Positions 9,602-64,000 of a stretch of 64,000 nt of DNA are shown in pieces (positions within the stretch are counted from its first letter, which is position 1; every line of letters begins with the position of its first letter). The notes beneath the pieces are model-generated. The model worked only from the letters and a program-made list of their open reading frames with translations. It made no database searches and was not told the DNA's origin. This DNA is from Malassezia japonica (taxonomy: Eukaryota > Basidiomycota > Malasseziomycetes > Malasseziales > Malasseziaceae). A program made the translations under genes and the position numbers. The DNA lies in assembly GCF_029542785.1 (NCBI RefSeq), contig NC_083371.1, positions 930,001 through 994,000 on the forward strand, read 5' to 3'.

Positions 9602-12600
9602 ATGAAGGAGCTGGTGTACGTTGATGATGCAAGCTGACCTCAGGATGCAAGATGCGCCCAAAAAGATGTGCGTAGCGCGACTGACCGCAGAAAAAACATC
9701 CAGTTTGGCGTGATGTCACAGGAGGAGATTGTGAACCTCGCCGAGCTCGAGGTGATCACGCGCGATATCTACGACCTACCCAACCGGCAGCCGCGCGTTG
9801 GTGGTGTTCTGGACCGTCGCATGGGTGTGAGTGATAAGGTGTCGACGTGTGAGACGTGTGGACATCGCATGGCCGACTGTGTGGGGCACTATGGCTACAT
9901 CAAGCTCGTTCTGCCCGTCTTTCATATTGGCTTCTTTAAGCATGTGATTAGCATCCTCCAGATGGTGTGCAAGTCGTGCGCGGGGATTCTGCTGGACGAG
10001 AGCGACCGCCGCAAGTTCCTGCGCCGCTTCCGGCGACCGAACCTCGAGAATCTACAGCGCACGCAGACGTTCAAGGCGGTGAACGCAACTGCGCGCAAAA
10101 TGCTCTATTGTCCTCACTGTGGTGCGACCAACGGCACGGTGAAAAAGGCGGGGCCGCTCAAGGTCGTCCACGAAAAGTTCCGCCAGAAAAAGACGGAGGA
10201 GGAGCAGATCGAGTTCCGCAAGACTTTTATGACGGCCGTGAGCATGGGCGGCGGCGAGCTTGCGCCGCATCTGAGCAAGGCGCAGGAGGATCTGAACCCA
10301 CTGCGAGTGCTCGACCTGTTTAAGCGCATCAGCGACGAGGACTGCGAGCTGCTCGGACTCAAGCCAGAGTATGGGCGGCCAGAGGAGTATATCTGGCAGT
10401 ACATCTGCGTACCCCCGGTCTGTATCCGCCCCAGTGTCGCGCAGGACGGCGCGACGAACGAGGATGACCTCACCGTCAAACTCACCGAGATTGTATTTAC
10501 GAACAACATCATCAAGTCGGGTCTGTCCAAGGGCAGCAAAGGCACGACCACCGCCCAGCTTGTCGAACAGTGGGACTTTTTGCAGCTCAGCGTCGCCATG
10601 TACATCAACTCCGAGATGCCGGGTGTCCCGCCGATGAGCGGCCACAAGCCGATCCGCGGTTTTTGCCAGCGCCTCAAGGGCAAGCAGGGGCGTTTCCGTG
10701 GTAACCTGTCGGGCAAGCGTGTCGACTTCTCCGGACGTACTGTCATTTCTCCAGACCCCAACTTGGCGATCGACGAGCTGGCCGTGCCGGAGCGCGTCGC
10801 CAAGATCCTGACCTACCCTGAGCGTGTCTTTTCGCACAATATCGAGGCGATGCGTGCCGCGGTGCGCAATGGTACGGATACGCACCCAGGTGCCAATTAC
10901 CACATCAACGGACGCGACGGCTTCAAGCGCTTCCTCAAGTTCCCCCAGATGCGCGAGGAGCTCGCGGCGAACCTGCACGTCGGCGACATCGTCGAGCGCC
11001 ACCTGCGTGATGGCGATATCGTGCTCTTTAACCGCCAGCCGAGTCTGCACAAGCTGTCGATCATGTGCCACCGAGTCAAGGTACGCCCGTGGCGTACGTT
11101 CCGTCTGAATGAGTGTGTCTGCAACCCATATAATGCCGACTTTGACGGTGATGAGATGAATATGCACGTCCCGCAGACCGAAGAGGCACGGACCGAAGCC
11201 CTGACACTGATGGGTGTCAAGCACAACCTCGTCACGCCGCGTAATGGTGAGCCGATCGTCGCGGCGATCCAGGACTTTATCACGGCCTCTTTCTTGCTCT
11301 CGCGCCGCGACCGCCTCTTTACGCGCGCACAGTTCTCCCAAATCTGCTCGTACTTTGGCGATGCGATGCTGCATATTGATATCCCGCCGCCTGCGATCCA
11401 AAAACCGGAGCGTCTCTGGACCGGCAAGCAAGTGTTTGGCTGCATGATTCGGCCCAACAAGCAGTCGCCAGTCTTGGTCAACTTGGAGGCACGCTGCCGT
11501 ACATTTGAGAAACCGACTGGCGGCCACATCAAGGAGATGTCGCCGAACGATGGCTACCTCGTCATCCAGAACTCCGAGGTGCTCTGCGGTGTGATGGACA
11601 AGGCGACGGTAGGTGACGGCAACAAGCACTCGCTCTTTGGTGTGATTCTGCGTGACTACGGCCCAGATGCCACGATCCAGACGATGAACCGTCTCGCGAA
11701 GACTTGTGCGCGCTGGCTCTCCAACCAGGGCTTCTCACTCGGTATAAACGACGTGACGCCTGGCCGCCAGCTGCGCGAGACCAAAGACCAAAATGTCGAG
11801 GTCGCCTACCGTCAGTGCCGCGACCTGATCGAGATGGCGAAGCGCGGGAAGCTGGAAAACCTGCCGGGCTGTGACCAGGAGCAGACGCTCGAAAGTAAAA
11901 TTTCGGGTGTCCTCTCGAGCGTCCGCAGTGACGTGGGTGAGATCTGCATGACAGAACTCAGCCGGCACAATGCGGCACTAATGATGGCCGTGTGTGGTTC
12001 CAAAGGCTCCAAGATCAACGTCGCTCAGATGGTCGCGTGTGTCGGCCAGCAGATCATTTCCGGCTCGCGTGTGCCGAACGGCTTCCAGGACCGCTCCTTG
12101 CCGCACTTTCCGAAGAAGAGCAAGGACCCGCCCAGCAAGGGTTTTGTCCGCAACTCCTTCTTCAGCGGGTTGGAGCCGACCGAGTTCCTCTTCCACGCGA
12201 TCAGTGGACGTGAGGGCCTGGTCGACACGGCGGTCAAGACCGCCGAGACGGGCTACATGCAGCGCCGTCTCATGAAGGCGCTCGAAGACTTGTCGACGCA
12301 CTACGACTTCTCAGTGCGCAACTCGGTCGGTGGTGTGGTACAGTTCTTGTACGGCGACGATGGTTTGGACCCTGCCGAACTCGAAGGCAACGCGCTCCCC
12401 GTCGAATACCACCGCACCTTCCGGCACGCGTCCGCCAAGACGGCGCACATCGCGGCGCCGATCCTGATGCCGTACGAGATCATGAAGATCGTCGACAAGG
12501 CGCTAGCTAACGATCGCTACCAGCGCGTGTGTACGAGCAAGTACATCGACCAAGTGCGTGAGTTCTGCCTGGTACAGATCGCCGAGCACGTTGCCAAGGT

Positions 12601-13901
12601 GCGTGAAGCCTATGGCATGTACGCTGCGCTCGAGCAGGACGGCGACTGGGACGAAGATACCGACCTGTCGCTCGGCGCTGACGAGGCGCAGTGGGCGATC
12701 GTCAACAACAAGGCGCGCGTTACTAAGCCGATCCTCGACGAGTTCCTCCAGCAGTGCTGGGAAAAGTACATGAAGGCGAAGATCGAGCCGGGTTCGGCCG
12801 TCGGTGCCGTCGGTGCTCAGTCGATCGGTGAGCCGGGTACGCAGATGACGCTCAAGACTTTCCACTTTGCTGGTGTAGCCTCGATGAACGTCACGTTGGG
12901 TGTTCCGCGTATCAAGGAAATTATCAACGCCGCCAAGGTGATCAACACGCCCATTATTGCCGCGAAGCTCGTCAGTGAGCACAGCGAGCAGGCGGCGCGC
13001 ATTGTAAAGGGCCGGATTGAAAAGACCTACCTTGGCGATGTTGCCTCGGTGATTGAGGAGGCATGGGCCGGAAACTACACGTACCTTGGCATTCACATCG
13101 ATATGGATGCCATCCAGAAACTCCAGCTGGAGGTTACCCTGGACGATATCAAGAATGCCATTGTGCAAATGCCGCGGCTCAAAATCCGCGACGAGCGCGT
13201 GACCATTCTCCCACGCAAGAACCAGCTCCGGATCCACGTGTATCCCGATGAAAAGGAGAAGGATGTATATTATACGCTCAAGTACCTCAAGCGGCTCTTG
13301 CCCAAGGTCGTGATCAAGGGTATTCCCAATGCAGCACGCGCCGTGATCAGCGACGAGAAGGGCGAGCGCAAGCTCTTGGTCGAAGGCTACGGCCTGAAAG
13401 ACGTCATGACGACAGAGGGCGTCATCGGCACGCAGACACAGACCAACCATGTGATGGAAATGCAGCAGGTGCTTGGTATCGAAGCCGCTCGCAATGCCAT
13501 CTACCGCGAGATTGACTATACGATGGCCTCGCACGGCATGTCGATCGACCCTCGTCACGTCATGCTGCTCGCCGACGTGATGACCTACAAGGTACGTATT
13601 TATACTAACATCAGGGCGAAGTGCTCGGCATCACACGGTTCGGTGTCGCAAAGATGAAAGACTCGGTCTTGATGCTGGCGTCGTTTGAAAAGACGACCGA
13701 CCACCTGTTCGATGCCGCTCTCTACGGAAAGTCGGACGCGATTGCAGGCGTCAGTGAAAGCATCATCATGGGTAACCCTGCTCAGACTGTGGGAACTGGC
13801 ATGTACGTATGGATTTTATGTGCCTTGCTGACACCAGGCCGGCGTTGGTTAGCCAACCGCCCACGCTGCCGCCCCCGCGCCCGCTTGTATTCGACCGATA
13901 G
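9602..13901 (+). CDS. RPC1: RNA polymerase III largest subunit (five exons)
   Basis: Exons 9602-9615, 9644-9667, 9691-13591, 13615-13802 and 13838-13901 give 1396 residues; introns are 28, 23, 23 and 35 nt. Splicing the first two introns yields the N terminus MKELVMQDAPKKIKNIQFG, which parallels the conserved start of yeast Rpo31; without them the conserved start is lost. Visible features: zinc-binding cysteines ([27 protein letters not shown]), the absolutely conserved catalytic [12 protein letters not shown] near residue 495, the bridge-helix/trigger-loop region ([20 protein letters not shown]), and C-terminal [20 protein letters not shown] spanning exon 4. It transcribes tRNA, 5S and U6 genes in the nucleus. 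The second intron starts GTGCGT, a less common donor. Confidence 0.95.
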
Positions 13902-19458: not shown

Positions 19459-22400
19459 ATGGCATCGCTCACTAGCGACGACGTGCACGTTCAGGTAACG
19501 CACACAGCGGGTATCACCCGACTGCTTTATCTTCCCAAGGCTGCGCCTGTTGAGTACGTCTCTATCAAGTGCTAACGCAGACGTCTTGTCACGGCAGGCG
19601 AGGACCATCTCGTCCGTATTCTTCCCTCAGAGGCGACGGCCTCGGATGTGAACCCTGTGGTAATCGAAGAGGCTACGCGCCCAATGACATGGGTGGATGC
19701 CGATGCACAATACCTCGTCACAGCGTCGGAAGACGGCGCAGTGCGCCTGTACAAGCACGAATCGGCTGAGCTCGTGCATATCATCCGCCGCGAAGTACTG
19801 CCCGTGCGCTGCGTCGCGATGGAGAGCGCAAGCCGTGCGGGTGCGTCTCCCCGTACTGCGGTCTGCTCTGACGAGCTGATCGTCCGCGTGGTGAATGCTG
19901 CCGATCCTCGCAACATTACGCTTCTCACGGGACACACGCGTGGCGTCCGCGCGGCGAGCTGGAGCCCCGCACTCTCGCTCTTGTTGACGTGCGGTGCAGA
20001 TGGTGATATTCGCGGCTGGGACATGTCGGGAAACGAGCCCCAGTGCGTCAAGGTCATTTCCAACCAGCTTCCTGCGCTGCGTCCCGAGAGCGAGTTCTCG
20101 TCGCAGGTCTGCTGGCATCCGTCCGGTGCCGTGTTTGCGGCGCCTCTCAAAACACAAGAGGTTGCCCTGATTCGAGCACCGATCAGTGCAGAAGAATTCC
20201 GTGGCGAACACGTTTGGGAAACGGTTGCTGTGCTGGGCGCTTCAAACGGAACGACCTCGGCTGAACAGCGCATGCCTAGCGGCCTGATCTCTGCCATGTC
20301 GTTCTGTCCCAATGGTCGGTACTTGGCTGTGGCGACAGAGGATAACCAGGTGACGGTCTGGGCGCTGGATTCGCGCCGTGTCTTGCGGACGCAGCAGGCC
20401 GAAGGCATCGTTACCGGCCTCAGTTGGCACCCCACGAAAGACATGCTGGCATGGACTGATATGCAGGGCCAGCTGGTGCGCTGGGATACTGTCATTGGTA
20501 CCACGCTGCCCAGTCCTTTTGAAGAGCTGCAGTTTGCGAGCGCCCAAGCAGAGGAAGAAGCACCCGAAGAGGATCTCGACCACGAGCTCGACGACCTGTT
20601 TGATGACACGCCGCTGGACGAGCCTGCGGCAGTGGAGCGCCCGACGCGCCAGCGTCCCAGTGCGCGTGCCGACGCGCCTGGTCTTGTCCAGAATGTGTTC
20701 CAGCCGGCGTCGACCCCGATGGAAGCGCAGCGGCGCTACTTGAGCGTGTCGCCTCTCGGCACTCTCACCGCTGTGGACCAAGATACGCACCAGACGATCT
20801 CCTTTGAGTCGTACGACACGTCGCAGCGCCGGAATTTCCGCTTTACCGACCACTATGGCTACAAAATGGCGAGCATGGCCGCACAAGGCATCCTCTTTGC
20901 GTGTGAGGCCGAGTCGGGCAGCCCCAGCAGTGTATTCTACCGCCCCTTTGACGACGTGCCTGGCATCCAAACTGAGTGGTCGATTAATCTTGCGGCGAAC
21001 GAGAATGCCGTGGCCGTGGCACTGGGTGGTATTGCGAATGCTGGCTCGCATGCGGATGTGCTCGTCGGTCCTGGCGGCGTTGTGGACGAAGGCCGGACGA
21101 CCGCTGCGACGGCGGTCGTTGCGACGTCACAAGGCTATCTGCGCTTCTTTGGCACAAGTGGTATGCAGGTCTATGTGTGGGCGCTCGGACTCCCGGTCGT
21201 GACGCTGGTAGCGAGCGCGACATCGGTGCTGGTCGTGTACCGCTCGGCGAATGCTGCGTCGAACCAGGTGCACCTCGAGTACCTGTTGATTGAGCTGTCG
21301 CAGCTTGCGACGATGCAACAAGGCACTGTACCGCTCCCCCCCAATGCAACGCTCTCGTGGGCCGGCTTCAACGAGCTCGGTGCGCCGTGCCTCTTTGACT
21401 CAACTGGGACGCTCTTTGTGTTGGACCGTGCATGGCGCCCCGGCCAAGGGCGCTGGGTGCCTGCGCTGGACACGGCGCAAGCCTTGCTTCCGACACGCAG
21501 CGACCAAGACGACGACGAAGCAGTGCGTGTTCCCCGCGTCCGCTGCTGGCCGATCGGCGCGACGGCGACGCACCTGCTTGGCCTGCTCCTCCCTACGTCA
21601 CAAAAGTACCCCAGCGTCAGCGGCCCCCGGCCCATGGTCCAGGAGCTGGCGCTGTCGCTGGTTCTCGCGCAGCGCGACAGCACGGCGACGCCGCTGGAAG
21701 AAACCGCGCTGCGCACGTCGCTCCTTGCGAATGCGACACGCGACGCGCGCGCTGCGACCGGCGACATGAACCTCGGCCCGGCCGGCCTGCCTGCAGACCG
21801 CGCGGACCCCGTCGCCCAGGAGATCGAGGCAGACAAGGCGCTGCTGCAGCTCATTCAGCTCGCGTGCAAGGCCGACCGGTACGCACGCGCGCTCGACGGC
21901 TCGCGTGCGCTGCATTCCGAAGCGACGCTGGATGCCGCGTTGAAGATCGCCTCCTTCTTCCACCTGCCGAGTTTGGCGGACCGTCTCGAACTGGTTCGTG
22001 CGCCGCTGGCCGTGCGAAAAGAGCTCGAAGAAGAGACGACGGACCGTGCGTGCGGAGTGGATGCCCTACTCCGCAACACGGCGCGCCTCCCTGTGCCGAC
22101 CGCAGCGCCGGCGGTGAGCGAAGCGCCGGCGAACCAAGACTCGCGCTCGGCGCTCCTCCAGCAAGGCTTTGTCCCCCGGCGCTCCTCGAGCGAGGTGCAT
22201 GGCCGTTCGGCGCTAGCGCGCGAAGGCCTTGCGCAAAAGCAGGTCGCCGATGAGTCGCCTGCGCCGGTGCCCAGCAGCACGCTGTCCTCGCTGGAGCCGA
22301 CGCCGAGTGCCGACGACACACTGCCGACGCCCGCGCCGGCGATCCGCACGAACCCCTTTGCGCGGACGCACTCGGTGGCCAAAGAGCGCCAGCTGCAAAA

Positions 22401-28742: not shown

Positions 28743-30657
<1,915 letters not shown>

Positions 30658-33082: not shown

Positions 33083-33119
33083 TCTTTAGAGCGCCAAACT
33101 GGGTCAGCATGGATACGTA

Positions 33120-48788: not shown

Positions 48789-49279
48789 CTAGTCATACAC
48801 TGCGTCAGTCACTGCACGTACCGTGGACGATGCCGTACCAAAACGTCCACCAGAGTAAGAAGCTCAGCGCATTCTCCTGCGCGCCTTGAAGGAGCACCCA
48901 GCGCGCGAGCTGCAGCGCGGACTGCACCGGCGTCGGCGGCGCGCGCAGCTGTGCGGCCTTGGCCGGGAGCAGCCGTTCGCTCGGATCGGTGATGGCCGGC
49001 AGGCTGCCGAGCACAAAGAACGCGCGGGGATCGCCTTTGGCGTTGACGAGCACCAGCACCGCGTTCACAAACACCACCGAGCAGAGAAAGAAGGCGAAGC
49101 CGCTCAGGTTCTGCAGCCCGAGCACGCCGGCGATCGCGCCTGCGAGCGAGAGCGTCAAGGAGCGGAAGCTACATGAGTCAGGATACGTACGAGAAGGCCT
49201 GGGCCATATTGTAGCCCACATTCTCCGCATTGTATTGCTGCACCCACGGCGTGGGCTCCGGCCGTGCACTCACCACCAT
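48789..49279 (-). CDS. EMC6: ER membrane protein complex subunit 6
   Basis: Exons on the minus strand: 49279-49191, 49168-48822 and 48799-48789; both introns are 22 nt; 148 residues. The last exon is only 11 nt and converts the end to WTFWYGIVHVYD, which matches the conserved WTFLYGMVHVY end of human EMC6. The N-terminal part is YNAENVGYNMAQAF, joined to SFRSLTLSLAGAIAGVLGL (first membrane helix), then a second helix (FFLCSVVFVNAVLVLVN) and a third near the C terminus. EMC inserts tail-anchored and multipass proteins in the ER. The protein is longer than human EMC6 (110 residues) because of a loop between helices 2 and 3. An upstream in-frame ATG at 49312 would add 11 residues. Confidence 0.88.
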
Positions 49280-49317: not shown

Positions 49318-50621
49318 ATGAGCGTCGTGACGCTCGAGGAGTTTCTCGAGGTAGGTCGCGCAACTGACGCAGCTCTTGAATGAGGAGCAGTACGTCGCAC
49401 TCCTAACGCAGGCACCTCGACCTCGGAAAGCTGCGGAACTATGCGCGGCACGGGATCCATCCCCAAGTGCGCGGAGTACGTCGCGCGACTCACGCAGGAA
49501 GTCTGGCTGTACCTCCTTGGCGTCCTGTCTGCGGACAAGAGCCAGGAGATGACGACGGTGCGGAACAAGTTCCTCGAGTACGAGTCGGTGAGCAAGCGTA
49601 TCCCGTTTGTCGAGAAGCAGGTGCGCACCGAAGTACTGCGGTACTACCGGCAGCGGCTGAGCTCGAACTCGAGCGAGCGCGAGCGCTTCGGCGTCTCGAT
49701 CATACGCGGCCCGCGGCCTGCGCCAACGACATCGAGCACATTTGACGCGGAGCAGGCACAGGACGTGCAGCGTGACGAACCCAAATATCCCCGCATCCTG
49801 CCCTCGACGCAGTACGGGCTCGTGACGATGCGCTCCAATCCGATGGTCGATGACTCAGAGGCTGTGTACGACCAACGGCGTCTCTCGCAGAATGTCGAGA
49901 ATGTGCTGTGTGCCTACCTCAACCGGCACCTCTTGAATCCCGCACAAGAGGGCGAGCATCCGCAGGCGGAGCGCGATGAGGAGTACGCGGCGCTGCAAAA
50001 GACGATGGAGTCGCGCATGCCGCGTGTATACCAGTGGGCGCCACAGGCGAGTCTCGTCCCAGGGACGAACCTCGGCGACTTTCACCCGTCGCTCGTCTAC
50101 CTCTGCGCGCCATTTGCGCAGTGTGTCCGGGCAGAGGCGGGCATCTACTTCGCGTTTGAGCGCCTAATGACCATGATTGAGGAGTACAACACCATCCATC
50201 CTCTCCCACAGCGCGTCGCCTCATTCCTGACGCTCTTCCGCACGACGCTCCCGGAGCTCCACGCGTACTTTGAGGCAGAAGAGGTCGACCTGCTGGCCGT
50301 CGCGACCAGCTGGCTGCAGCACCTCCTCGCGCGCGAAATGCAGATGGACGATTTGATGCGCCTCTGGGGTACGTCACCATACTCACCCAGACACCTACTT
50401 TGCGATGCCCGACCTGCTCGACCTGCACCTCTACGTCTGCCTTGCGATCCTAACCAACTGTAAGGACGCTCTCGAGGACCTCGACCGCTCCGAGACGACC
50501 AGCATGCTCTTCTCACTCCCGTCGCTGGACGTCGACCGTGTACGTCGCCGCACTCACCCAGATTATCAGCGACGCAATGAACATCCGCCTCTCGCTCGAG
50601 CACGACCCGCTCTACGAATAG
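49318..50621 (+). CDS. TBC-domain Rab GTPase-activating protein
   Basis: Exons 49318-49350, 49373-49389, 49412-49475, 49498-50368, 50391-50539 and 50562-50621 give 397 residues; all five introns are exactly 22 nt and exon 2 is 17 nt. The N-terminal part reads LDLGKLRNYARHGIHPQVRG then EVWLYLLGVLSADKS, the entry motif of TBC domains (RxxxW-LLG). Near residues 200-340: NVENVLCAYLNRHLLNP, YLCAPFAQCVRAEAGIYFAF and LLAREMQMDDLMRLWD, then TYFAMPDLLDLHLYVCLAIL. The catalytic Arg of the IxxDxxR finger is not obvious, so GAP activity is uncertain. Target Rab unknown. The start lies 38 bp from the divergent EMC6 start. Confidence 0.82.
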
Positions 50622-53700: not shown

Positions 53701-54069
53701 CCCCCATGCTGCCGGTGCCGCCCGCCTCTGCGCTTGCGCTGTACCGCCTTGCGCACCGTTACGACCTCCTCCCCCTGTGCGATTTGGCCACTGCGCACAT
53801 CATTTCCCAGCTTACGCCCCAAAACGCGGTCAACTACCTGCTATGTACGGCGCTGTTTGAGCAGCTGCAGTATGCGATCCAGCAGTACATCTGTGCGTAT
53901 CCTTGCTAACTTAGTACAACACCCCAAAGAAGTCGGCTCGAGCCCCGAGTTTGTGCACTGCTGCACCCAGGTCTCCAACGGCGAATGGGGCCCCGCGGCG
54001 GGCCAGACCATCGCGTCGCTCATGCGCATTTTGCTCCACAAGAATGGCGCAGCAACTCCTGGTACATAA
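50715..54069 (+). CDS. BTB/POZ-domain protein with MATH-like region
   Basis: Exons 50715-53892 and 53915-54069 (22-nt intron with a GTGCGT donor) give 1110 residues. The first ~500 residues are disordered, rich in Pro, Ala, Arg and Glu. Around 555-680 is a MATH-like segment (SFSWTIDKLDQFVDEV, then RPLFGAERWRLELSR). The BTB fold follows near 795-880 (FVRDRVLWAHAAVLRARSEF, YWFLRYLYTGEVQF), is interrupted by a ~100-residue low-complexity insertion, and resumes with ALYRLAHRYDLLPLCDLATA. Splicing replaces the short CAYPC end with about 50 more residues (VGSSPEFVHCCTQVSNGEWG). BTB proteins with MATH often recruit substrates to Cul3 ligases; here that is inference. Confidence 0.72.
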
Positions 54070-54106: not shown

Positions 54107-55175
54107 ATGGCCAAGCTGATGAAGAGCCTGCTCTCGGTAGTTTCCCTGTCGTTTGTGGTGCTGACCTTTGCGTCGGCCCGCTCGCAGCGTATACGTTACT
54201 ACCTGAATGCTACGCTGTACATTCTTTCGCTCGGCGTCTGCAGCACGCTCGGCGTGTTTTACGCGGTGATCCTCGGCCTGACCGGCAACCGCTACAACAC
54301 GAACCTGTGGGTGGCCCGCTCCTTTGCGCGCATTGCCGGCACGCTCATCGGCTACAACGTCAAGATCGAGGGTGCCGAGCACCTGAAGCAGCGCCCGGCG
54401 ATCATTGTCGGCAACCACCAGAGTTTCCTCGATATCCTCTATCTCGGCGCAATGATGCCGGCCCACTCGGTCATTATGGCGAAGAAGGAGCTGCGCATGG
54501 CGCCGCTTCTCGGCCAGTTCAGTACGTCGTCTTGCTAACACAGTGTGGCTCGGTGGTGCAGTGTTCATCGACCGCAAGAGCCGCAGCAGCGCCATCAAGA
54601 CCATGCGCCAGGCGGGTGATCGCATGCGCCGCGACAAGCTCACGCTCTTTGCGTTCCCGGAGGGCACGCGCTCGCACTCGGCCCTGCCCGAACTGCTGCC
54701 GTTCAAGAAGGGCGTCTTCCACCTCGCGCTGCAGAACAACCTGCCGATCATCCCGGTGGTCTGTGAGAACTACCACCGCCTGTACGACAGCAAGACCCGC
54801 TTCGAGGGCGGCGACCTGCACCTCGCGGTCCTTCCCCCGATCAGCACCGAGGGCATGACCGAGACTGACACGGACAAGCTCATCGCCCTTGTCCACGACG
54901 CGATGCTCCGCCGCTTGCTCCAGTTTGATGTACAGAGCGACGCGCAGGACGTGCAGAGCACGCTGCACCCCGCCAAGCAGCCGCGCACGCAGGTGCGTGG
55001 CCTCGCCGGCCTCGCCGCGCGCATCATCGGCGACGGCAGCAAGCAGCAGCACGACCGCACCGTGCGCCGCGTCCAGCAGGAGGCCGAGGCACTGCGCCCG
55101 GATCACGCGGGCGCGTCCAACCCCAGCGATTACGGGCTGGTCTCGGCCTCGGAGCGTAGTGCGCCGGCTTCGTAG
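54107..55175 (+). CDS. SLC1: 1-acyl-sn-glycerol-3-phosphate acyltransferase
   Basis: Exons 54107-54521 and 54544-55175 (22-nt intron) give 348 residues. Two or three hydrophobic helices occupy residues 1-60. The acyltransferase motif NHQSFLD carries His104 and Asp109 (H-x4-D). Splicing joins LLGQF to MWLGGAVFIDR, and motif III FPEGTRS follows at about 177-182. PEELPFKKGVFHLA-type block LLPFKKGVFHLALQNNLPII is intact. It makes phosphatidic acid from lysophosphatidic acid in the ER. The C-terminal ~90 residues are hydrophilic and longer than in bacterial PlsC. The ATG lies 37 bp after the BTB gene stop on the same strand. Confidence 0.94.
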
Positions 55176-55206: not shown

Positions 55207-56878
55207 ATGCACTGGGCCGCGTTTGTAGCAGCAGCGGCGGGAGTGAGTGTGTGCGCGGCACAGGTGCCGCGCGGCGTCGCGCCACAAGGTGCGTTTGCGA
55301 TTCTGACCCAGACGCGGGACTCTATGCGCCGCTCCCGGACCAGGGAAAGGGGCCGATGTTCAAGTGCCTCGGCACGGACCAAATCATCCCTTATAAACAG
55401 ATCAACGACGACTACTGCGACTGCGCGGACGGCTCGGATGAGCCGGGTACGTCGGCATGCGACAACGGCCGCTTCTACTGTGAGAACAAGGGGCACATCC
55501 CGGCGTACATCCGCAGCTCGCAGGTGAACGACGCCGTGTGCGATGAGGCGTGCTGCGACGGCTCGGACGAGACCGATGGCAAGGTTCACTGCCCGAACGT
55601 CTGCGCGGAGGTGAACAAGGCTTACCGCAAGGAGCGCGCGAAGCAGGCCAAGGTCTACGCCGCCGGCGCCAAGATCCGCGACCAGTACGTCCAGACCGCC
55701 CGCAACGACCGCGAGTTTCACGAGACGGCGCTCGCGCGCCTCCGCGCCGAGCTCCCGGGTGCAGAGGAGACCGAGGCGCAGCTCAAGCGCGCGCTCGAGG
55801 CGGCCGAGAACGTCGGCAACTGGTTCGAGCAGCAAAAGCGCCAGAGCGCGCTCTTTGCGCAGCTCGAGCTGCGCCAGTCGACGCTGCGCTCGCAACGCGA
55901 CGCACTCGGCTCGCTCGTGGGCGAGCTGCGTGCAGTAGGCAACATGCTTGAGCGCCTCAGTCCCGAGTCGTCCAAGGAGGACCTGGAGAGCGTCGCGGAA
56001 TCCTTCCGCATCTGGCGGGGCCAGGTCTTTGACGGCGACGACGAGCGCGACGCGACGCTGGAAGAGAAGCTCGCTGCGCTCACGAATGTGGGCGAGCTCA
56101 GCGACGAGGACCTCGAGACATTGATCAACGAAGACCCCCTCCTCCTCCTCGATGGCGCGCCCGACTTTAGCCAGGGCGCTCCGCAGGTGCCGGATGCTTG
56201 TACGTAACAATGGCTAACGCAGTGCGCTCCATCCCATCGTACCTCCCCGATGCGTTCGTGCCGCTGTACGAGCGGGGCGTCGCGTGGCTCGTCGACACGC
56301 TCATCCGCCTCGACGTGATCTCGCCGCAGCAGCGCGAGAATGCCGGCCGGCCATACCAGCACGCCAAGGGCCTGGCGGCTGCGCGCGAGGCACACGAAAA
56401 GGGTGCCGAAGCGCTGAACAAGATCAAGAACGACATCCGCTACCACGAACAGCGCATGCGTGAGCGCGCCAACAAGATCGGCCGCGACGGCGAGTTCCAG
56501 GAGATCGACGGAACGTGCCTCAAAAAGGACATGGGCGAGTACACCTACGAGTTCTGCTTTGGTGGCACCACCAAGCAGATTTCGAACAACGACGGCTACA
56601 CCTTCAGTCTGGGCCGCTTTGAGAAGTTCGACGTGAACGGCCAGTTCAGCACCGACGACCCCCGCCACTATCTCACGATGCTCTACGCGCACGGCCAGAC
56701 CTGCTGGAACGGGCCGCCGCGCAGCACGCACGTCAAGCTGGAGTGCAGCGACACCAACGAGCTTCTGCACGTCTTTGAGGCGGAAAAGTGCACCTACTCG
56801 ATGCGCGTCGCGACGCCCGCCGTGTGCTTCCCGAAGGAGGCTGTGCCCGAGGTCAAGGTGGAACACACCGAACTGTAA
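55207..56878 (+). CDS. GTB1: Glucosidase II beta subunit (PRKCSH/GTB1)
   Basis: Exons 55207-55288, 55312-56199 and 56223-56878 give 541 residues; introns are 23 nt each. The first exon holds a signal peptide (MHWAAFVAAAAGVSVCAA) and PRGVAPQ, joined to DAGLYAPLPDQG. Two LDL-receptor-like Cys-rich modules follow (NDDYCDCADGSDEPGTSAC; NDAVCDEACCDGSDE), then a coiled coil (about 140-290) and the C-terminal MRH (mannose-6-phosphate receptor homology) lectin domain (YEFCFGGTTKQ; GQTCWNGPPRSTHV; CTYSMRVATPAVC). It pairs with the alpha subunit to trim glucose from N-glycans in the ER. The C terminus is HTEL, a variant of HDEL-type retrieval signals. Confidence 0.94.
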
Positions 56879-56885
56879 ACCGTAG

Positions 56886-57175
56886 CTACTTGACACTGAT
56901 TTCCTGGTTGGGCTCGATCGTTTCACTGTGTGAGCCGGACGACGTACATCGAGTCGTGCTTGCCGCCCTGCACGGACGCCTCGAGCTTCTCCGCATACTC
57001 CTCGGGCATGCGCGCCGCAAAGCCGCGCAAAAAGTCGGCATTGTAGCGTTGCTGGATAATACCGCCCTGCTGCTCGACCTCGGAGACATACTTGTCGACC
57101 TCGGCAGAGGACGCCGACTGGCGGAACATGCTGCGTCAGCCACCACACCTACACCACAAACGACTTAAGACCCAT
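56886..57175 (-). CDS. PBI2: Proteinase inhibitor I9-type small protein (Pbi2-like)
   Basis: Exons on the minus strand: 57175-57153, 57130-56948 and 56925-56886; introns are 22 nt each; 81 residues. The 23-nt first exon gives MGLKSFVVMFRQSASSAEVD, the beta-strand that starts the inhibitor I9/subtilisin-propeptide fold; the rest is YVSEVEQQGGIIQQRY, DFLRGFAARMPEEYAEKLEA and DSIETIEPNQEISVK. Proteins of this type (yeast Pbi2/LMA1) inhibit vacuolar proteinase B and help vacuole fusion. There is no signal peptide. An ORF scan would show only the middle exon with a wrong tail. It is convergent with GTB1 (7 bp) and divergent from MED5 (46 bp). Confidence 0.88.
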
Positions 57176-57221
57176 CGTGTGCACGGGGAAAGTCGATCGG
57201 GCGATCGGGCCTTTGGCTACG

Positions 57222-59832
57222 ATGGCGTATTGGCTTCGGGGGACGGTCGTCGCGGCGCTCGGCGGGGGCTGGGCGTCGGTGCAGCTCCTGGAGCGCGTGC
57301 AGGAGGAGGCAAAGGAGCGGAATGAGCCGGTAGCTGCCGCGCTGCATGCGCTGCCGGATGCGCTGCTTGCTACAGCGTTTGCCGTCGCACCGCCGCCCCG
57401 AGGCGTCCTCGAGTACGTACGCACGCTGTGCGTCGCGCCGCCGCCGCATACGGACCCGGCAGAGCACGATATGGGGACGCTTATGCTTGCGCTTCTTGCG
57501 CGCGCGGAAAGCAACACACAGACCGCCGACCAAATCTGTGCGCTGATCCTTGAAGGCTGCGGCGACGACGTGCCGCGATCGCTCACGCCGGCGCGTCTCG
57601 CGGAGCACGCGCCGGAGCACCGCTTCTGGGAGCAGGGTCTCCAGCTTGTTTCCGTCGCACTCGCGCTCGCGGCGCCGCAGGGCGCTGCCGCAGCGCTCTT
57701 CCAGCGCCTCGCCGCGCATCCCCACCACGAAGTACTGCCGGAGCGCTTCGAGAACATTGTACAACAGGTGGATAGCGCATGTGCTCATGATGCGGCATGG
57801 ACAAGCGTGGCACAGGCACTCGTCGCCCTCGAAAAAGAGCCCGAGGAAATGGCCGTGCGCCCGACGCACACGGGCCTCCCGGACCTCTGGAGCGGCCGCC
57901 AGACGCTTCCGTACGCACTCGCGCTCGTCGCCGCGGCGGAAAATAGGCATACGGGCAACGTGCGCGTCGCGCCGCTTCCCCCGCCGCCGGAACCGGAGCC
58001 GGAAATGATATACCTCGTGCACCGCCTGTCGTGCGATGTGGTCGACTGGCAGGACAAGTGCGCCATGGCTGAAGGCATGCTCCAGACCCGCCTCGCGCAT
58101 GCTGACGCAGAGCCAGACAAGATGCGCCTCTCTTTCTACGTCGAGCTGCTGATTGCGACGGCGCATGCGGCGCAGACCTGCGTCGGCCACGCGCAAGAGG
58201 CGGCGCCAGCGTGGCGCGCGGTCATCGGCGGCGTTCTTCCTCCGCTGCTGCGCTTCCTCGACAGCGAGAGCGAGGTCGAGGCGCAACGCAGCCTCTATGG
58301 CGCGATATCCGCCTTTGTCCAGTACCACACGCCGCTGAGCCAGTGGGCGATGCTCGAGCCGCCGACCGAGCCCGCGCTCCCCGAGCATATCCTGCGGTGC
58401 ATGGCGAGCTGGGGCCTCGCCGAGACCCATGCGTGTGAGCCAATCTCTGCGAGCGAAATTGTGCTCGCAGCAGATCCGAATCTGCAGCAATACCGGTCCT
58501 CGGTCCAGGCCCAGCTTACGACGCGGGGCGGAATTGCGCCGCTCGCTGCACAGGCCGTGTCGGACCCCGCACGCCAGCTATGCTTTGCGCTCGCCTTGGC
58601 CGTGGCCGGTTCACAGTGGACGCGCGAGGCAGCAGACATGGACCAGGTCGCCGAGGTGTGTGCCGCGCTCGACACGCCTGGTGCGTGCGAGGCGCTGTTC
58701 TTCTTTTATAGCCGCGCATCGCTCTGCAATGCGCTCCTCACCGCGCTGGAGCAGCTGCGCACCGCGGAGTGGCAGGACGCTGTGGATCTCGAGACGATCG
58801 GCACAGTGATCCTCTTTGTGCAGCGGATTGGCGTGCCGACCGACAAGCCGAGCGCAGCCACGGTGTTTCTGACCTTCACGCAGGTGCCTACTCTCCCGCG
58901 TGAAGCTCTGTCGGACAAGCGGCGTGACCTGCTGGACCGGTGGTGCAGCGCGCTGGTTTCGGACGGCGTCTCGGACGCCTTGCTACGGTACGTACTGCGA
59001 CTGACCCAGCGACTCGCCGCCGTGGACTGTATTCCGCCTTGCACCGACCCTGCTCCAGCAACTGATGGGCGCCTACCGGCAACAAGAGTTCGATCTCGCC
59101 ACACTGCAATCCGCACTGTCCTACTTTTTGCAAGCACCGCTGCGCTACACACTGCCGTGCATTTTGCACTGGCTTGTGCAGCAGGTGCAGTACGCATCCG
59201 CAACATCCATCTATGTATCCGCACCGCACAGTACCGTGCATCTCGAGATGCTCGTGATGCTTCTTGGCGCCGAGACGTGCCCTCCGTCCGTCCGTGCTAT
59301 GTTTGCGCCTACCGTGCTTCCGCTGCTAGGCGACGCACACGGCGAGTTACGGGACCGTCTACGAAGCCTACCCCCCTCTTTTCTCGTGCCGTGGCCAGGC
59401 GCGAGCTTGGCCCTGGCCCTGGGCCCCGACGCGACCGCCTCGGACGCCGCTGCGGCCTTTCTCCAACAGCGCGGCGCGTCGGCGGCGGCGCGCTGGGCCC
59501 TGTACGCTGCACTCCATACCGATATCCACGCAAGTGCAGCGCGCCTCGTCTGCGCCACGCTTGCCCTCGCACCACCCCACCCTGGCTCGTTGGCCCATGC
59601 GGCGTTGGGGTGTTGGGACATGCCACGTGCTTCGGCCAGTGAGGTGCGCACGGTGGCCGCGTGCTGCCTCGAGAGCGCTGCGCTCGCGCGGAGCATGCCT
59701 GGCGACCCGCAGGCCGTGGACCACCTCTTCGCCCTCCTTTCCAGCCGCGCATCAATGCTGCGTGAACTGCTGGCCGGTGCACGCCCCCCGCTGGCGGTTC
59801 TCGCTGGAGCACTGCCGAGTACAGAGCCATAG
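57222..59832 (+). CDS. MED5: Mediator subunit 5 (Nut1) candidate
   Basis: Exons 57222-58987 and 59010-59832 (22-nt intron) give 862 residues of helical repeat protein. Splicing replaces a spurious frame with LLRDSPPWTVFRLAPTLLQQ then LMGAYRQQEFDLATLQSALS and YFLQAPLRYTLPCILHWLVQ; this block, with HLEMLVMLLGAETCPPSVRA, resembles the most conserved region of fungal Med5. Med5 belongs to the Mediator tail module, which receives activator signals. Low overall conservation makes the call less sure than others. No catalytic motif or membrane segment is seen. Confidence 0.7.
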
Positions 59833-59949: not shown

Positions 59950-61612
59950 ATGTTGTACGCACAATCTGCGACGTCGCAGCTGGAATGGTTCGCGTCGATG
60001 AACCCCATCGAGCACAAGGTGGATAACCTGTATATGCGCAAGACGTACGTCCTCATAGCCCTCTAACTCCAGCGCTATCGTTGCGACGATTGGGCCAAAG
60101 ACAAACAACGTTAAGATGTTGCACAAGCTGCGCAACACGGGTATGAACATTGTGCGCTTGAATGCTAGTCACGGTGATCACTCGTACTTCCAGAGTGTGA
60201 TTGACAATGCCCACCAAGTCGAGCGCGAAGCACCGGGCCGTCCGCTGGCAATCGCGCTTGATACCAAAGGCCCGGAGATGCGTACGGGTGTTATGGTTGG
60301 CAATGAGGACCAGTCGATCGAGGAGGGCCACGAGTTCATCGTGACGACCAACAAGGAGTACGCGGAAAAGTGCAGCGCAGACCATCTCTACATTGACTAC
60401 GAGCATCTGCCCGAGAAGGTGCAGCCGGACCGCATTATTTACATTGACGACGGTATCCTTGCGCTGCGCGTCCTCTCGATTGACGGCCGGGACGTGCGTG
60501 TGGTGGCCGAGAACAGCGGTGTGCTCTCATCGCGCAAGGGTGTCAACCTCCCGCTGACCGAAGTCGACCTGCCCGCCGTCTCGGAAAAGGACCGCCGCGA
60601 CCTGGAGTTTGCACGCGACCAGAACCTGGACATGATCTTTGCCTCGTTCATCCGCTCTAAGGACGACGTGCAGAGCGTGCGCGAGATCCTGGGCGAAAAG
60701 GGCTCGCACATCCGTGTGATTGCCAAGATCGAGAACCACCAGGGTCTCGCCAACTTTGACGAGATTCTCGACGCGGCCGACGGTATCATGGTCGCGCGTG
60801 GTGATCTGGGTATTGAGATTCCTGCGCCGCAGGTCTTTATGGCGCAAAAGATGATGATTTCGCGCTGCAACATTGTGGGCAAGCCCGTAATTTGTGCGAC
60901 GCAGATGCTCGAGAGCATGACGGTCAACAACCGCCCCACGCGTGCCGAGGTCTCGGACGTGGCCAACGCGGTGGTCGACGGCGCGGACTGTGTCATGCTT
61001 TCTGGCGAGACGGCCAAGGGCAAGTACCCCGTCGAGGCCATCAAGATGATGGCCGAGACGACCTACATTGCGGAGCAGAGCCTTTCGTACCAGGCACTCT
61101 TTAACGAGATGCGTGGCCTGACGCGTGTGCCGACCAGCACTTCGGAAACCATCGCCCTGGTCGCTGTCTCTGCCTCGCTGGAGCAGCGTGCGGGTGCGAT
61201 TCTGCTCATGTCGACCTCTGGCCAGACCGCACGCCTCGTGAGCAAGTACCGGCCTCAATGCCCGATTCTGATGGGTATGTATCCCGACTGACCCAGTGAC
61301 GCGCAACGCCGACACGGTGCGCTCGTGCCACTTGTATCGCGGCACCTACCCCTTCCATTACCCCCTGCCCCACCCTGATAGCAACTCCAAGTGGCAGGAG
61401 GACGTGGACAACCGCATCAAGTTTGGTCTCTCGGAGGCGCTCAAGCTGCACATTCTTCGCAAGGGCGACACCGTGATCTGTATCCAGGGCTGGCGCGGCG
61501 GCAAGGGCCACACCAACTCGCTGCGTGTGGTGGTACGTATCTCGGCTAATCACAGACTGTTCCTACGTCCACCGAAGGTTACATTCTCGAAGACACCTCG
61601 ACGGCGATCTAA
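59950..61612 (+). CDS. CDC19: Pyruvate kinase
   Basis: Exons 59950-60044, 60073-61274, 61297-61532 and 61556-61612 give 529 residues; introns are 28, 22 and 23 nt. Splicing joins YMRKT to [12 protein letters not shown] and restores [12 protein letters not shown]. Active-site motifs: [38 protein letters not shown] (catalytic Lys in KIEN), [12 protein letters not shown], and [19 protein letters not shown]. The C-terminal regulatory domain runs through intron 2 (ILMG to [16 protein letters not shown]) to LEDTSTAI. It makes pyruvate and ATP from PEP and ADP, the last step of glycolysis, in the cytosol. The 117-bp upstream region has a small hairpin at 59872-59892 and a pyrimidine-rich stretch before the ATG. 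Confidence 0.96.
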
Positions 61613-61625
61613 ACGACTACATAGC

Positions 61626-62007
61626 CTAGGGGTAGATCTGGTTCAAGTAGTTCATGTCGAACGAAGCGGCGAGCTCGGGCGCGGCCTTGGCCAGCGCCTG
61701 GAACTCGGGCGCAGCCTGGTGCGCCTTCAGCGCCTCAGCATTGTCGTACTCTTCAAAGACGACCAGCTTCAGGCCCTCGCTGTACTCACGGGAGAGGCGG
61801 TACTGGATTAGTGCACTGGCCACCTACCGTCTTCGTGCCGGGCTCCTCGTTCGAGTTAGCACGCTTCGCGACAGCAGTAACAAGTTCGGCAAGCTTTTCA
61901 GCCTCGCTCTTGCCCTTGCCAATCAGACTGCGTTAGGAAGGAGGGTGGGGGGGGACGTACGTAGCCACGAGAATAAACGGTCCTTGTGCGGGGGGCTGAG
62001 CAGACAT
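61626..62007 (-). CDS. ABM-domain (antibiotic biosynthesis monooxygenase-like) small protein
   Basis: Exons on the minus strand: 62007-61961, 61927-61828 and 61802-61626; introns are 33 and 25 nt; 107 residues. The joined protein reads [20 protein letters not shown], then [20 protein letters not shown] and [20 protein letters not shown], the dimeric ferredoxin-like fold of ABM proteins. Members act as heme-degrading or quinone monooxygenases or have unknown roles. No signal peptide. The first intron contains an unusual run of eight C after GTACGT. Two CACGTG boxes (62031-62036 and 62050-62055) lie in the 76-bp promoter shared with the divergent unknown gene. Confidence 0.8.
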
Positions 62008-62083
62008 GGTGGGTCGGTGCACGGGACGACCACGTGGTGTGTTACTTTTCACGTGGCGATCCCAACACGCTCGGCGCGCGGCC

Positions 62084-62653: not shown

Positions 62654-64000
62654 CTATATACCTGGAACGACTGTATGATTTTTGAAGAAACGCGTGCGCT
62701 CGTCCTCAAACTGGAGCACGACAATGTCTCCACGGCGGTTCCAGTCCGGGTGCGAGAGCGCGTTCCAAATCCGCCGTGTCTCGACGTAGCCGCGGCGGCG
62801 CAAAAAGGCGCCGACCGTGTCGCCACCGTCACTTTCACGCATGTCGAGGAGCGACGTGTACAGGACGAGGTGCGACGGCCACGTATGCCGCCAGCCCAGG
62901 TCGCTCTGTACATGCTGGGACACGGCGTCGGTCGCGTTAGTAGGCCGCGGCTTGTGAAAGTGGTACTGCCGCATAGGAGGAAACTGGGTATCGACGCGCG
63001 CAGGGAAGCGGTCGCGGAGGTAGCGGACGGGATCCGCAAAGAAAAAGTCGGACTGGTCCCAGTACGTGGCGGGGTCCTTGTTGCGTGGCGGGGGACACGC
63101 GAGGAACCACGCGCGCCCCACGTCGCCGCTCATCAGTTCACTGTCCATGTCGGTCATCTCGAGGACACGTGCGTGCATGTGGCTCTGCCACGGCGTAGAG
63201 TGGCACGGCATGAGGAAGCCAAACGTTGTGCGGTGCGTCGCAATAGCGTGCACGTATTGCACGACCTCGATCTGCCCTTTGGCGTGAAAGGCCGCGAGAT
63301 AGAGCGTCACCGGGACCTGGGCGAGGAGAAGGAAGCGCAGCGCCCGTGGAAATGCACGCCACGCGGTGCCCCATCCGCCGCTAGGAGGCGCGATCGCGCT
63401 CGCAGCAAACAGGTGAAAAATGGGCAGCAGCGGCTGCAAGAAGCGCGCCTCTTTGTGGCTCAGCAGCGAATAGGCGCCGACGGTCCACGCACAGAGGCCC
63501 CCGAGCGTGGCCATCGCGCTGGAGCTCGGCTGGTACAGCGCGTTGCTCCAACCCTTTTGCGCCCACGGCATCGCGACAGTGAGGATCAACGGCAGCCCTT
63601 GGGATAAGTACCAGTGCCACGGATGCGCGCCGTAAAAGACAGACAAAGATTGCACGACGTTTTCGTAGAAAAAGTTCCACACCGTCACGACACGCTCGCC
63701 ATAGTACCACGAGTCGAGCGCAATGCCTGCACACAATACTAGCGACCTGGGTCAGCAAGGTAACGTACCCCACGCACGCCGCGTGCGCAACGAGCGCTGC
63801 TGTGCGCTTTGGGCCGCCCCACTGCGCTGCGTCCCGCAGCGCCTTTCCCCCAAGGAAAGCCCAGAGCAAGAGGCTTGTCGGACGCAGGAGCACGGCGGCG
63901 AATGCCGCAAATACGCCTACGTCAAACACGAGCAGGCTCCCGTGTGCAGCTGCCGCTGGCGTCAAGGGCCAGTACAGCAGCGCGATGCTGCACAGCGCCG
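62654..64000 (-). CDS. GPI10: GPI mannosyltransferase III (GPI10/PIG-B), 5' end outside window
   Basis: Exon 63769-64000 (continuing past the window) and exon 62654-63746 are joined over a 22-nt intron; about 440 C-terminal residues are seen. The first part is a chain of hydrophobic helices (VFAAFAAVLLRPTSLLLWAF). Splicing gives HAACVGSLVLCAGIALDSWY, then GERVVTVWNFFYENV and FYGAHPWHWYLSQGLP, a block typical of GT22 dolichol-phosphate-mannose transferases of the PIG-B group. A further helix set and SHKEARFLQPLLPIFHL follow. It adds the third mannose to the GPI anchor precursor in the ER lumen. Confidence 0.9.

What the first reader, a model, noticed from the sequence alone, without database searches (positions are those of the whole stretch)
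9616..63768. Population of ultra-short introns with a sharp peak at 22 nt
I could place 46 introns from reading frame and protein conservation. 25 are exactly 22 nt: 24140, 24473, 26298, 26336, 27000, 27475, 27650, 27825, 30404, 47390, 47975, 48800, 49169, 49351, 49390, 49476, 50369, 50540, 53893, 54522, 56926, 57131, 58988, 61275 and 63747 (lower coordinate of each). Nine are 23 nt (9668, 13592, 27409, 31116, 41212, 48498, 55289, 56200, 61533). The other 12 are 25-40 nt. Spliceosomal introns this short are at the low extreme known for eukaryotes, and a modal length of 22 would be exceptional for a fungus. I do not recall it being described.
Basis: partly seen in the sequence, partly recalled or inferred. 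Interest (0 to 1): 0.85.

Follow-up and report, generated by a model that had tools for sequence, protein, structure and literature searches.

The report
A yeast with 22-base introns
The skin yeast Malassezia japonica appears to cut thousands of tiny introns out of its gene messages, about half of them exactly 22 bases long and hardly any shorter, which puts its splicing machinery at what looks like a hard size limit and leaves room for coding pieces as small as three bases.

Summary
All 34 introns with stated coordinates carry U2-type signals there (33 GT-AG, one GC-AG). The assembly is Malassezia japonica. Genome-wide, the strict 22-nt motif occurs 2,329 times, reversed pattern 0. A narrower motif occurs 5 times at 17-21 nt (control 2) and 461 times at 23-53 nt (control 15). 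A codon-bias test gives the frame shift expected from removal in 64 of 77 callable 22-mers and 10 of 13 23-mers. Homology joins cleanly at all 17 of 34 junctions that matches cover; 8 lay outside any match, 9 were not tried. The mode is the corner of two floors: first G to branch A 16 nt, branch A to last G 5 nt. Elsewhere in the genome three consecutive 22-nt introns enclose 3-nt and 7-nt exons that encode Rieske CPWH. Shorter introns are known in other lineages: a new variant of a known kind. No RNA data.

The parts
2990..3013 (-).
   Evidence: motif, spliced ORF
9616..9643 (+). 28-nt intron
   Evidence: motif, spliced ORF
9668..9690 (+). 23-nt intron
   Evidence: motif, spliced ORF; homology not tried
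13592..13614 (+). 23-nt intron, gene with RNA polymerase large-subunit domains
   Evidence: motif, spliced ORF; homology not tried
13803..13837 (+). 35-nt intron, same gene
   Evidence: motif, spliced ORF
19554..19580 (+). 27-nt intron, Ctf4/Mcl1-like gene
   Evidence: motif, spliced ORF
24140..24161 (+). 22-nt intron
   Evidence: motif, spliced ORF; homology not tried
24473..24494 (+). 22-nt intron
   Evidence: motif, spliced ORF; homology not tried
26298..26319 (+). 22-nt intron, RRP36 gene; followed by a 16-nt exon
   Evidence: motif; exon fits the frame at both window sizes; outside the Pfam match
26336..26357 (+). 22-nt intron, RRP36 gene
   Evidence: motif, spliced ORF; outside the Pfam match
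27000..27021 (+). 22-nt intron, RRP36 gene
   Evidence: Pfam RRP36 stretch spans the junction
27409..27431 (+). 23-nt intron, VPS20
   Evidence: deposited M. japonica protein P0001 equals the spliced model; orthologs
27475..27496 (+). 22-nt intron, VPS20; same site holds an 8-aa insert in two relatives
27650..27671 (+). 22-nt intron, VPS20
27825..27846 (+). 22-nt intron, VPS20
   Evidence: M. psittaci P0006 lacks 9 residues next to this site
28562..28601 (-). 40-nt intron, gene with NifU_N domain
   Evidence: motif, spliced ORF
29207..29243 (+). 37-nt intron, putative short-chain dehydrogenase gene
   Evidence: motif, spliced ORF; gene name recalled from the sequence, not tested
29931..29961 (+). 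31-nt intron, same gene
   Evidence: motif, spliced ORF
30404..30425 (-). 22-nt intron, mitochondrial L11-type gene
   Evidence: PDB alignment of uL11m runs across the junction
31116..31138 (+). 23-nt intron, NOL10-like gene
   Evidence: motif, spliced ORF; homology not tried
33099..33120 (-).
   Evidence: motif, spliced ORF; the one PDB alignment printed ends before the junction
39302..39336 (-). 35-nt intron, putative aldehyde dehydrogenase gene
   Evidence: motif, spliced ORF; gene name recalled
41212..41234 (-). 23-nt intron, RRM-type gene
   Evidence: motif, spliced ORF; gene name recalled; homology not tried
41891..41920 (-). 30-nt intron, same gene
   Evidence: motif, spliced ORF
41995..42027 (-). 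33-nt intron, same gene
   Evidence: motif, spliced ORF
47390..47411 (+). 22-nt intron, SWD1-like gene
   Evidence: motif, spliced ORF; ortholog alignment not informative here
47975..47996 (+). 22-nt intron, SWD1-like gene
   Evidence: 5 of 7 homologs align without gap at the junction, 2 with a one-column gap nearby
48498..48520 (+). 23-nt GC-AG intron, SWD1-like gene
   Evidence: GC 5' end; 6 of 7 homologs align across the junction, M. furfur P0249 has an insert
48800..48821 (-). 22-nt intron, EMC6-like gene
   Evidence: motif, spliced ORF; outside the Pfam match
49169..49190 (-). 22-nt intron, EMC6-like gene
   Evidence: motif, spliced ORF; Pfam stretch only begins at the junction
49351..49372 (+). 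22-nt intron, GYP1-like gene; followed by a 17-nt exon
   Evidence: four named Malassezia orthologs
49390..49411 (+). 22-nt intron, GYP1-like gene
   Evidence: four named Malassezia orthologs
49476..49497 (+). 22-nt intron, GYP1-like gene; read through in gene calls P0123/P0124
   Evidence: four named Malassezia orthologs
50369..50390 (+). 22-nt intron, GYP1-like gene
   Evidence: four named Malassezia orthologs
50540..50561 (+). 22-nt intron, GYP1-like gene
   Evidence: four named Malassezia orthologs
53893..53914 (+). 22-nt intron
   Evidence: motif, in two overlapping spliced ORFs of which at most one is real; homology not tried
54522..54543 (+). 22-nt intron, acyltransferase gene
   Evidence: Pfam Acyltransferase stretch spans the junction
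55289..55311 (+). 23-nt intron, glucosidase II beta gene
   Evidence: Pfam PRKCSH-like stretch spans the junction
56200..56222 (+). 23-nt intron, glucosidase II beta gene
   Evidence: motif, spliced ORF; outside the Pfam matches
56926..56947 (-). 22-nt intron, small protein gene
   Evidence: motif, spliced ORF (also in a second, spurious-looking ORF); no Pfam match
57131..57152 (-). 22-nt intron, small protein gene
   Evidence: motif, spliced ORF; no Pfam match
58988..59009 (+). 22-nt intron
   Evidence: motif, spliced ORF; homology not tried
60045..60072 (+). 28-nt intron, pyruvate kinase
   Evidence: PDB alignment across the junction
61275..61296 (+). 22-nt intron, pyruvate kinase
   Evidence: PDB alignment across the junction
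61533..61555 (+). 23-nt intron, pyruvate kinase
   Evidence: PDB alignment across the junction, which lies 2-3 residues from its end
61803..61827 (-). 25-nt intron
   Evidence: motif, spliced ORF
61928..61960 (-). 33-nt intron
   Evidence: motif, spliced ORF
63747..63768 (-). 22-nt intron, gene runs off the window
   Evidence: motif; removal gives one frame open for 440 aa, best unspliced frame stops at 205; homology not tried

Best explanation
The segments are U2-type spliceosomal introns of Malassezia japonica, shrunk to the smallest size its major spliceosome accepts. The typical one carries GTANGT, 7 free nt, a branch site CTNAY, and YAG one nt later, so branch site and 3' splice site are practically fused with no room for a pyrimidine tract between them. 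Two floors (first G to branch A 16 nt, branch A to last G 5 nt) add up to 22 nt, and about half of the motif introns found sit in that corner. Each intron is recognised as one unit (intron definition), so exon size hardly matters and exons of 3-17 nt can lie between two such introns. Shown: motifs, length spectrum, both floors, frame restoration, homology across junctions, U2 and U6 genes with canonical core motifs. Inferred: removal in vivo, steric cause of the floors, intron definition.
For: Motif and coordinates. Spectrum with zero at 14-21 nt and 85 at 22 in 264 kb; 2,329 genome-wide against 0; 5 at 17-21 (control 2) and 461 at 23-53 (control 15) for the GTACGT pattern. Frame shift equals length mod 3 in 64 of 77 callable 22-mers (99 in all, 22 too weak to call), 10 of 13 23-mers, 3 of 3 24-mers, 6 of 6 25-mers (binomial against 1/3: 3e-19 and 0.0016 for the first two). 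17 of 34 listed introns are covered by an alignment or domain match and all 17 join cleanly. Deposited M. japonica VPS20 equals the spliced model with four introns. Floors in the spacer/tail grid. U6 with ACAGAGA and U2 with GUAGUA. The 3-nt and 7-nt exons between 22-nt introns restore Rieske CPWH: 34.9 bits spliced, 18.3 unspliced, cut-off 20.3.
Against: No RNA reads or peptides were available. The frame test disagrees for 13 of 77 callable 22-mers and 3 of 13 23-mers, and for single cases at 28, 33 and 36 nt; the caller was right in 1,113 of 1,210 windows of its own training set. The relaxed motif (GTRNGY) gives 8 hits at 14-21 nt against 4 in the reversed control, and the GTACGT motif 5 against 2 genome-wide at 17-21 nt, so rare shorter introns are not excluded. 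In the grid 9 hits have spacers under 7; 6 are known introns read with a second upstream CTNAY, 3 are unexplained, with 6 such hits in the reversed control. 17 of the 34 listed introns have no homology support: 8 lay in searched proteins but outside any match, 9 were not tried. A spliced-ORF fit (47 of 48) is weak alone in GC-rich DNA, where long chance frames abound. U1 was not found. A relative seems to have an intron with a 0-nt tail (P0127, 36 nt), so the tail floor need not hold genus-wide. Micro-exon frames fit in 6 of 7 cases at 60 nt but only 4 of 7 at 90 nt.
Confidence: 0.92

Rival explanations
1. The 22-nt mode is not a spliceosomal limit but a by-product of genome compaction (deletion bias) that happens to end near 22 nt.
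For: Malassezia genomes are small and gene-dense (PMC7426719, passage).
Against: Deletion bias alone predicts a smooth decline. Counts fall from 98 hits at a 7-nt spacer to none at 0-6 nt with a tail of 0-4 nt, and no hit has a 0-nt tail.
Confidence: 0.25
2. The segments are removed by a non-spliceosomal route (tRNA-type or HAC1/XBP1-type endonuclease).
For: Very short segments and near-fixed length.
Against: GT/GC-AG ends, 5' splice-site and branch motifs at fixed places, and a continuum with 23-40 nt introns bearing the same signals.
Confidence: 0.02
3. They are assembly errors or coding inserts that stay in the protein.
For: Five proteins (four of named relatives, one unnamed) hold such inserts.
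Against: 2,329 copies of one structured motif, frame shift equal to length mod 3, orthologs without the insert at the same sites, loss of the Rieske CPWH motif when retained.
Confidence: 0.02

Closest known systems
Encephalitozoon cuniculi (microsporidian) introns, 22-76 nt (PMC3629993, passages)
   Different: 37 introns against thousands here; mean 35.8 nt (PMC2483917, passage) rather than half at the minimum
Chlorarachniophyte nucleomorph introns, 18-21 nt (PMC10245619, passages)
   Same: Many introns in a narrow ultrashort range in a compact genome
   Different: Shorter; no branch signature reported for B. natans (PMC2483917, passage), while motifs here are strict; M. japonica is an ordinary fungal nucleus
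Heterotrich ciliate introns 15-16 nt and mikrocytid introns 16-17 nt (PMC10245619, passages)
   Same: Intron population pinned at a minimum
   Different: 5-7 nt shorter and narrower; distant lineages
Paramecium and Nyctotherus introns, about 25 nt (PMC5014332, start of abstract in listing)
   Same: Ultrashort introns as the main class
   Different: Ciliates; no branch signature for P. tetraurelia (PMC2483917, passage)
Introns annotated in other Malassezia: M. restricta median 30, mean 37.2 nt; M. arunalokei median 40, mean 68.1; M. globosa mean 76-79 (PMC9241646 and PMC4634964, passages)
   Same: Same genus, 'very short introns' noted in general terms (PMC7426719)
   Different: Annotated lengths are longer; annotation settings may have missed the shortest (M. 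restricta work lowered AUGUSTUS to 15 nt, PMC6473144, passage). A 22-nt mode was not seen in the passages read

Membership tests
U2-type (major) spliceosomal introns | GT-AG or GC-AG ends | tested here: met
   33 of 34 GT-AG, 1 of 34 GC-AG
U2-type (major) spliceosomal introns | Branch site matching the U2 branch-recognition sequence | tested here: met
   CTNAY present in all 34; U2 gene with intact GUAGUA
U2-type (major) spliceosomal introns | Removal restores the reading frame and the conserved protein | tested here: met
   64 of 77 and 10 of 13; 17 of 17 junctions covered by a match, 17 of 34 not covered or not tried
U2-type (major) spliceosomal introns | U1 snRNA present and pairing with the 5' splice site | tested here: inconclusive
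   No U1 found by RF00003 (only 41 of 132 candidates scored), by the word ATACTTACCTG (0 hits), by ATACVTACCTG (17 hits, no U1 match in Rfam and none U1-like by eye) or by a gapped Sm-site pattern (4 hits; the only one fetched had no Rfam match)
U2-type (major) spliceosomal introns | Excision as a lariat in RNA | not testable with these tools
   No RNA data
Ultrashort-intron genomes (population near a minimum size) | Dominant narrow length class below about 30 nt | tested here: met
   85 of 166 GTANGT motif introns of 57 nt or less are 22 nt, 28 are 23 nt
Ultrashort-intron genomes (population near a minimum size) | Sharp lower wall | tested here: met

The most novel reading that the evidence does not exclude
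M. japonica runs pure intron-definition splicing pressed against a two-part mechanical floor (16 nt + 5 nt), so that a 76-nt stretch can hold three introns and two exons of 3 and 7 nt encoding iron-sulphur ligands. The floor differs between species (a 21-nt intron is implied in M. obtusa by protein back-translation), and U1/U6 pairing has been re-tuned for GUACGU, since +4 A is nearly absent although METTL16-family and SNRNP27 homologs exist.
Probability: 0.35. Interest if true: 0.82.

Novelty: new variant of a known kind. Interest (0 to 1): 0.66.

Why it matters
Ultrashort introns have mostly been described in organisms that are hard to work with (nucleomorphs, parasites, ciliates). Genetic tools exist in this genus (transformation and gene deletion in M. 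furfur and M. sympodialis, start of abstract of PMC5654937 in listing), so the question 'what sets the minimum intron' becomes testable by minigenes. [quoted passage not shown] In practice, default minimum intron lengths will damage Malassezia gene models; what look like in-frame ultrashort introns already appear as inserts in proteins of four named relatives.

Tried and rejected
Rejected: sequencing error, coding inserts and non-spliceosomal removal (see rivals). The idea that loss of METTL16 or SNRNP27K explains the lack of +4 A was tested and not supported: a METTL16-family gene (PF05971, C8:266958-267695, E 6e-41) and a partial SNRNP27 match (28 of 56 profile positions) are present. The +4 preference itself is real (A 3 of 166 in motif introns against 27 of 274 in other GTANGT, Fisher p 0.0007; C 117 of 166 against 132 of 274, p 5e-6) and unexplained; the 'other' group may hold undetected introns. 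In PMC10581693 the words Malassezia, Basidiomyc and Ustilag do not occur. Attempts to find U1 led nowhere. The absence of one 11-mer shows only that U1 does not carry that exact 5' end; the second search varied one of its 11 positions. A plasmid search with the Rieske peptide found nothing. Genome-wide counts of other lengths rest on one 5' motif (GTACGT) because searches were capped. The first 100 of 461 longer hits (all on C1) were tallied: 45 of 23 nt, 14 of 24, 14 of 25, the rest longer, a few of 46-53 nt spanning two introns.

Full report
WHAT WAS CHECKED. The window is C2:930001-994000 of an 8,433,779-base assembly in 9 contigs. A protein identical to a window gene product is deposited as Malassezia japonica VPS20 on a contig of 1,414,235 bases, the length of C2, so the organism is M. 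japonica, a basidiomycete skin yeast.

THE SEGMENTS. At the 34 coordinates given, 33 segments are GT-AG and one (48498) is GC-AG; all carry CTNAY before the end, in all 25 22-mers at positions 14-18. A loose scan gave 48 further hits of 20-60 nt. The 34 dropped hits are mostly overlapping alternatives or weak sites, including one 22-mer (59630) and one 23-mer (36853); three over 40 nt may be real. Removing all 48 leaves 47 inside spliced frames of at least 60 aa, two of them in more than one frame; the last, at the window edge, gives a frame open for 440 aa against 205 unspliced. This fit is weak alone, because chance frames are long in DNA of 62% GC.

CHANCE. In 264 kb (both strands), GTANGT...CTNAYNYAG has 0 hits at 14-21 nt, 85 at 22, 15 at 23, 4 at 24 and 6 at 25; the reversed sequence gives 0-1 at each length and Markov simulations 0-0.3. 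With the looser GTRNGY there are 8 hits at 14-21 nt (reversed: 4) and 99 at 22. Genome-wide: GTANGTN7CTNACNCAG, exactly 22 nt, 2,329 (reversed 0); GTACGT pattern at 17-21 nt 5 (reversed 2), at 23-53 nt 461 (reversed 15). The density in the sample (99 per 264 kb) extrapolates to roughly 3,000 introns of 22 nt, an inference.

READING FRAME. A codon-usage model trained on 49 long ORFs calls the frame of 90-nt stretches correctly in 1,113 of 1,210 windows of the same ORFs. Across the 22-mers the frame moves by +1 in 64 of 77 callable cases (99 in all, 22 too weak), by 0 in 3 and by +2 in 10. For 23-mers it moves by +2 in 10 of 13, for 24-mers by 0 in 3 of 3, for 25-mers by +1 in 6 of 6; among the 13 callable hits of 27-36 nt, 10 agree and one each disagrees at 28, 33 and 36 nt. 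Single motifs, taken without regard to introns, give mixed shifts: all GTANGT 118/88/56, all CTNAYNYAG 39/72/24 for 0/+1/+2. So the shift follows the length mod 3, as removal demands.

HOMOLOGY. Of the 34 listed introns, 17 are covered by an alignment or domain match and all 17 join cleanly: VPS20 (four), GYP1-like (five; named orthologs P0121, P0122, P0125, P0126), SWD1-like (47975, where 5 of 7 homologs align without gap, and the GC-AG one, 6 of 7), pyruvate kinase (two, plus the 28-mer), mitochondrial L11, RRP36, acyltransferase and glucosidase II beta (one each, by the span of a Pfam match). Eight lay in proteins that were searched but outside any informative match (26298, 26336, 47390, 48800, 49169, 56200, 56926, 57131); nine were not tried (9668, 13592, 24140, 24473, 31116, 41212, 53893, 58988, 63747). 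The PDB alignment printed for 33099 stops before the junction. In the GYP1 alignment P0123, P0124, P0128, P0129 and P0130 are divergent or incomplete at some sites and were not counted.

THE SHAPE OF THE LIMIT. Counting spacer (GTA[CGT]GT to CTNAY) against tail (CTNAY to first YAG) in 264 kb, 85 of 174 hits sit at spacer 7, tail 1. Spacer 7 has 98 hits; no hit has tail 0; spacers 0-6 have 9 hits, all with tails of 5-10. Six of the nine are known introns read with a second, upstream CTNAY; three remain. The reversed control has 17 hits scattered over the grid, 6 of them at spacers 0-6. Thus, apart from such scattered hits, the first G to the branch A is not under 16 nt and the branch A to the last G not under 5, and 22 is 16 + 5 + 1. 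In the 99 aligned 22-mers, position 4 is C 70, G 19, T 9, A 1. Many longer introns listed have T or C runs in the spacer, which suggests growth by slippage (impression, not counted).

MACHINERY. U6 keeps ACAGAGA and U2 keeps GUAGUA. U1 was not found. A METTL16-family gene and a partial SNRNP27 match, families linked in Saccharomycotina to the base at +4 (PMC10581693, passages), are present, so their absence cannot explain the lack of +4 A.

MICRO-EXONS. At C1:403157-403232 (minus) three exact 22-nt introns follow each other, separated by CCC (3 nt) and GTGGCAT (7 nt); two more 22-mers flank them in the 501 bases fetched. With all five removed, the frame reads VVCPWHQYDF downstream of ACPHLG, the two ligand motifs of a Rieske centre (motif roles recalled). 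The Cys codon itself spans the junction into the 3-nt exon. Pfam Rieske scores 34.9 bits over residues 26-78 when spliced, and 18.3 bits, under the cut-off of 20.3, over only the first half when unspliced. The PDB Rieske protein 3d89 aligns across VVCPWH (E 1.7e-5); the unspliced peptide finds nothing at E up to 1. In 264 kb, 7 of 194 gaps between neighbouring motif introns on one strand are under 20 nt (8-17 nt). With the exon kept, the frame fits in 6 of 7 at 60-nt flanks and 4 of 7 at 90 nt; two of the seven (12 and 15 nt) would fit if skipped too, two rest on margins of 0.02-0.03 at 60 nt, and the 14-nt one fails at both. The 17-nt exon of GYP1 is confirmed by orthologs. A 3-nt exon leaves no room for exon definition, so recognition across the intron is the natural reading (inference).

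RELATIVES. Proteins of M. yamatoensis and M. psittaci (VPS20), M. obtusa and an unnamed record (GYP1) and M. furfur (SWD1) hold inserts of 8, 7, 12 and 8 residues exactly at these intron sites. Each of the four inserts can be reverse-translated to an intron with the same signals (24, 21, 36 and 24 nt); random peptides can in 17, 632, 83 and 17 of 200,000 trials. So in-frame ultrashort introns appear to have been annotated as coding, and a 21-nt intron is implied in M. obtusa. The 36-nt case needs a 0-nt tail, against the floor seen in M. japonica. M. psittaci VPS20 also lacks 9 residues beside the 27825 site, unexplained. DNA of these species was not seen.

WHAT IS IN PRINT. 'Very short introns' in Malassezia (PMC7426719, one passage); annotation of M. 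restricta with a 15-nt minimum (PMC6473144, passage); medians of 30 and 40 nt (PMC9241646, passages); M. globosa means of 76-79 nt (PMC4634964, passages). PMC7025860, on Malassezia karyotypes including M. japonica, does not use the word intron. The passages seen in PMC8476143 (M. sympodialis as an intron-poor species) and PMC11649378 (no mention of Malassezia) describe no ultrashort class. Searches were listed whole; others showed only the top 15-20 of 267-615 papers; most listed papers were not opened. No listing or passage gave a 22-nt mode, but only open-licence papers are held and three key papers were not.

VERDICT. The introns are real at high confidence short of RNA. The steric floor is the likeliest cause of the mode but is inferred. 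The kind is known; the combination (a fungus of a genus with genetic tools, thousands of introns, strict signals, about half at one length, a 3-nt exon) is a new variant.

Noticed in passing
G000:C1:403157-403232 (L053, minus strand): Three consecutive 22-nt introns around a 3-nt and a 7-nt exon; together they encode CPWH of a Rieske domain.
   Followed up: yes
5' splice sites of 166 motif introns in C1:1-200000 plus window: +4 is C in 117 and A in only 3, although a METTL16-family gene and a partial SNRNP27 match exist.
   Followed up: partly
whole genome G000: No U1 snRNA gene found by Rfam or by 5'-end patterns; the 11-mer ATACTTACCTG gave no match in the assembly.
   Followed up: partly
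P0003, P0006, P0128, P0249, P0127 against window 27475, 50369, 48498, 50540: Public protein models of other Malassezia contain inserts that look like unspliced in-frame ultrashort introns; one implies a 21-nt intron in M. obtusa.
   Followed up: yes
window 48498-48520 (+): A 23-nt GC-AG intron with conserved flanks; its M. furfur counterpart could be a GT-AG 24-mer.
   Followed up: partly
P0006 (M. psittaci VPS20), beside the site of window 27825: Nine residues are missing next to the intron site, a different 3' splice site or an annotation slip.
   Followed up: no
hits, e.g. G000:C1:257518-257547 and 1812579-1812606: Introns of 25-32 nt often have T or C runs in the spacer, as if lengthened by slippage; not counted.
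   Followed up: no
G000:C1:209967-209992: Two 5' splice-site motifs 4 nt apart (GTACGTATGT) allow 26- and 22-nt introns with one 3' end.
   Followed up: no
window 19225-19324 (-): A tRNA gene match of 100 nt, longer than usual, probably with its own intron.
   Followed up: no
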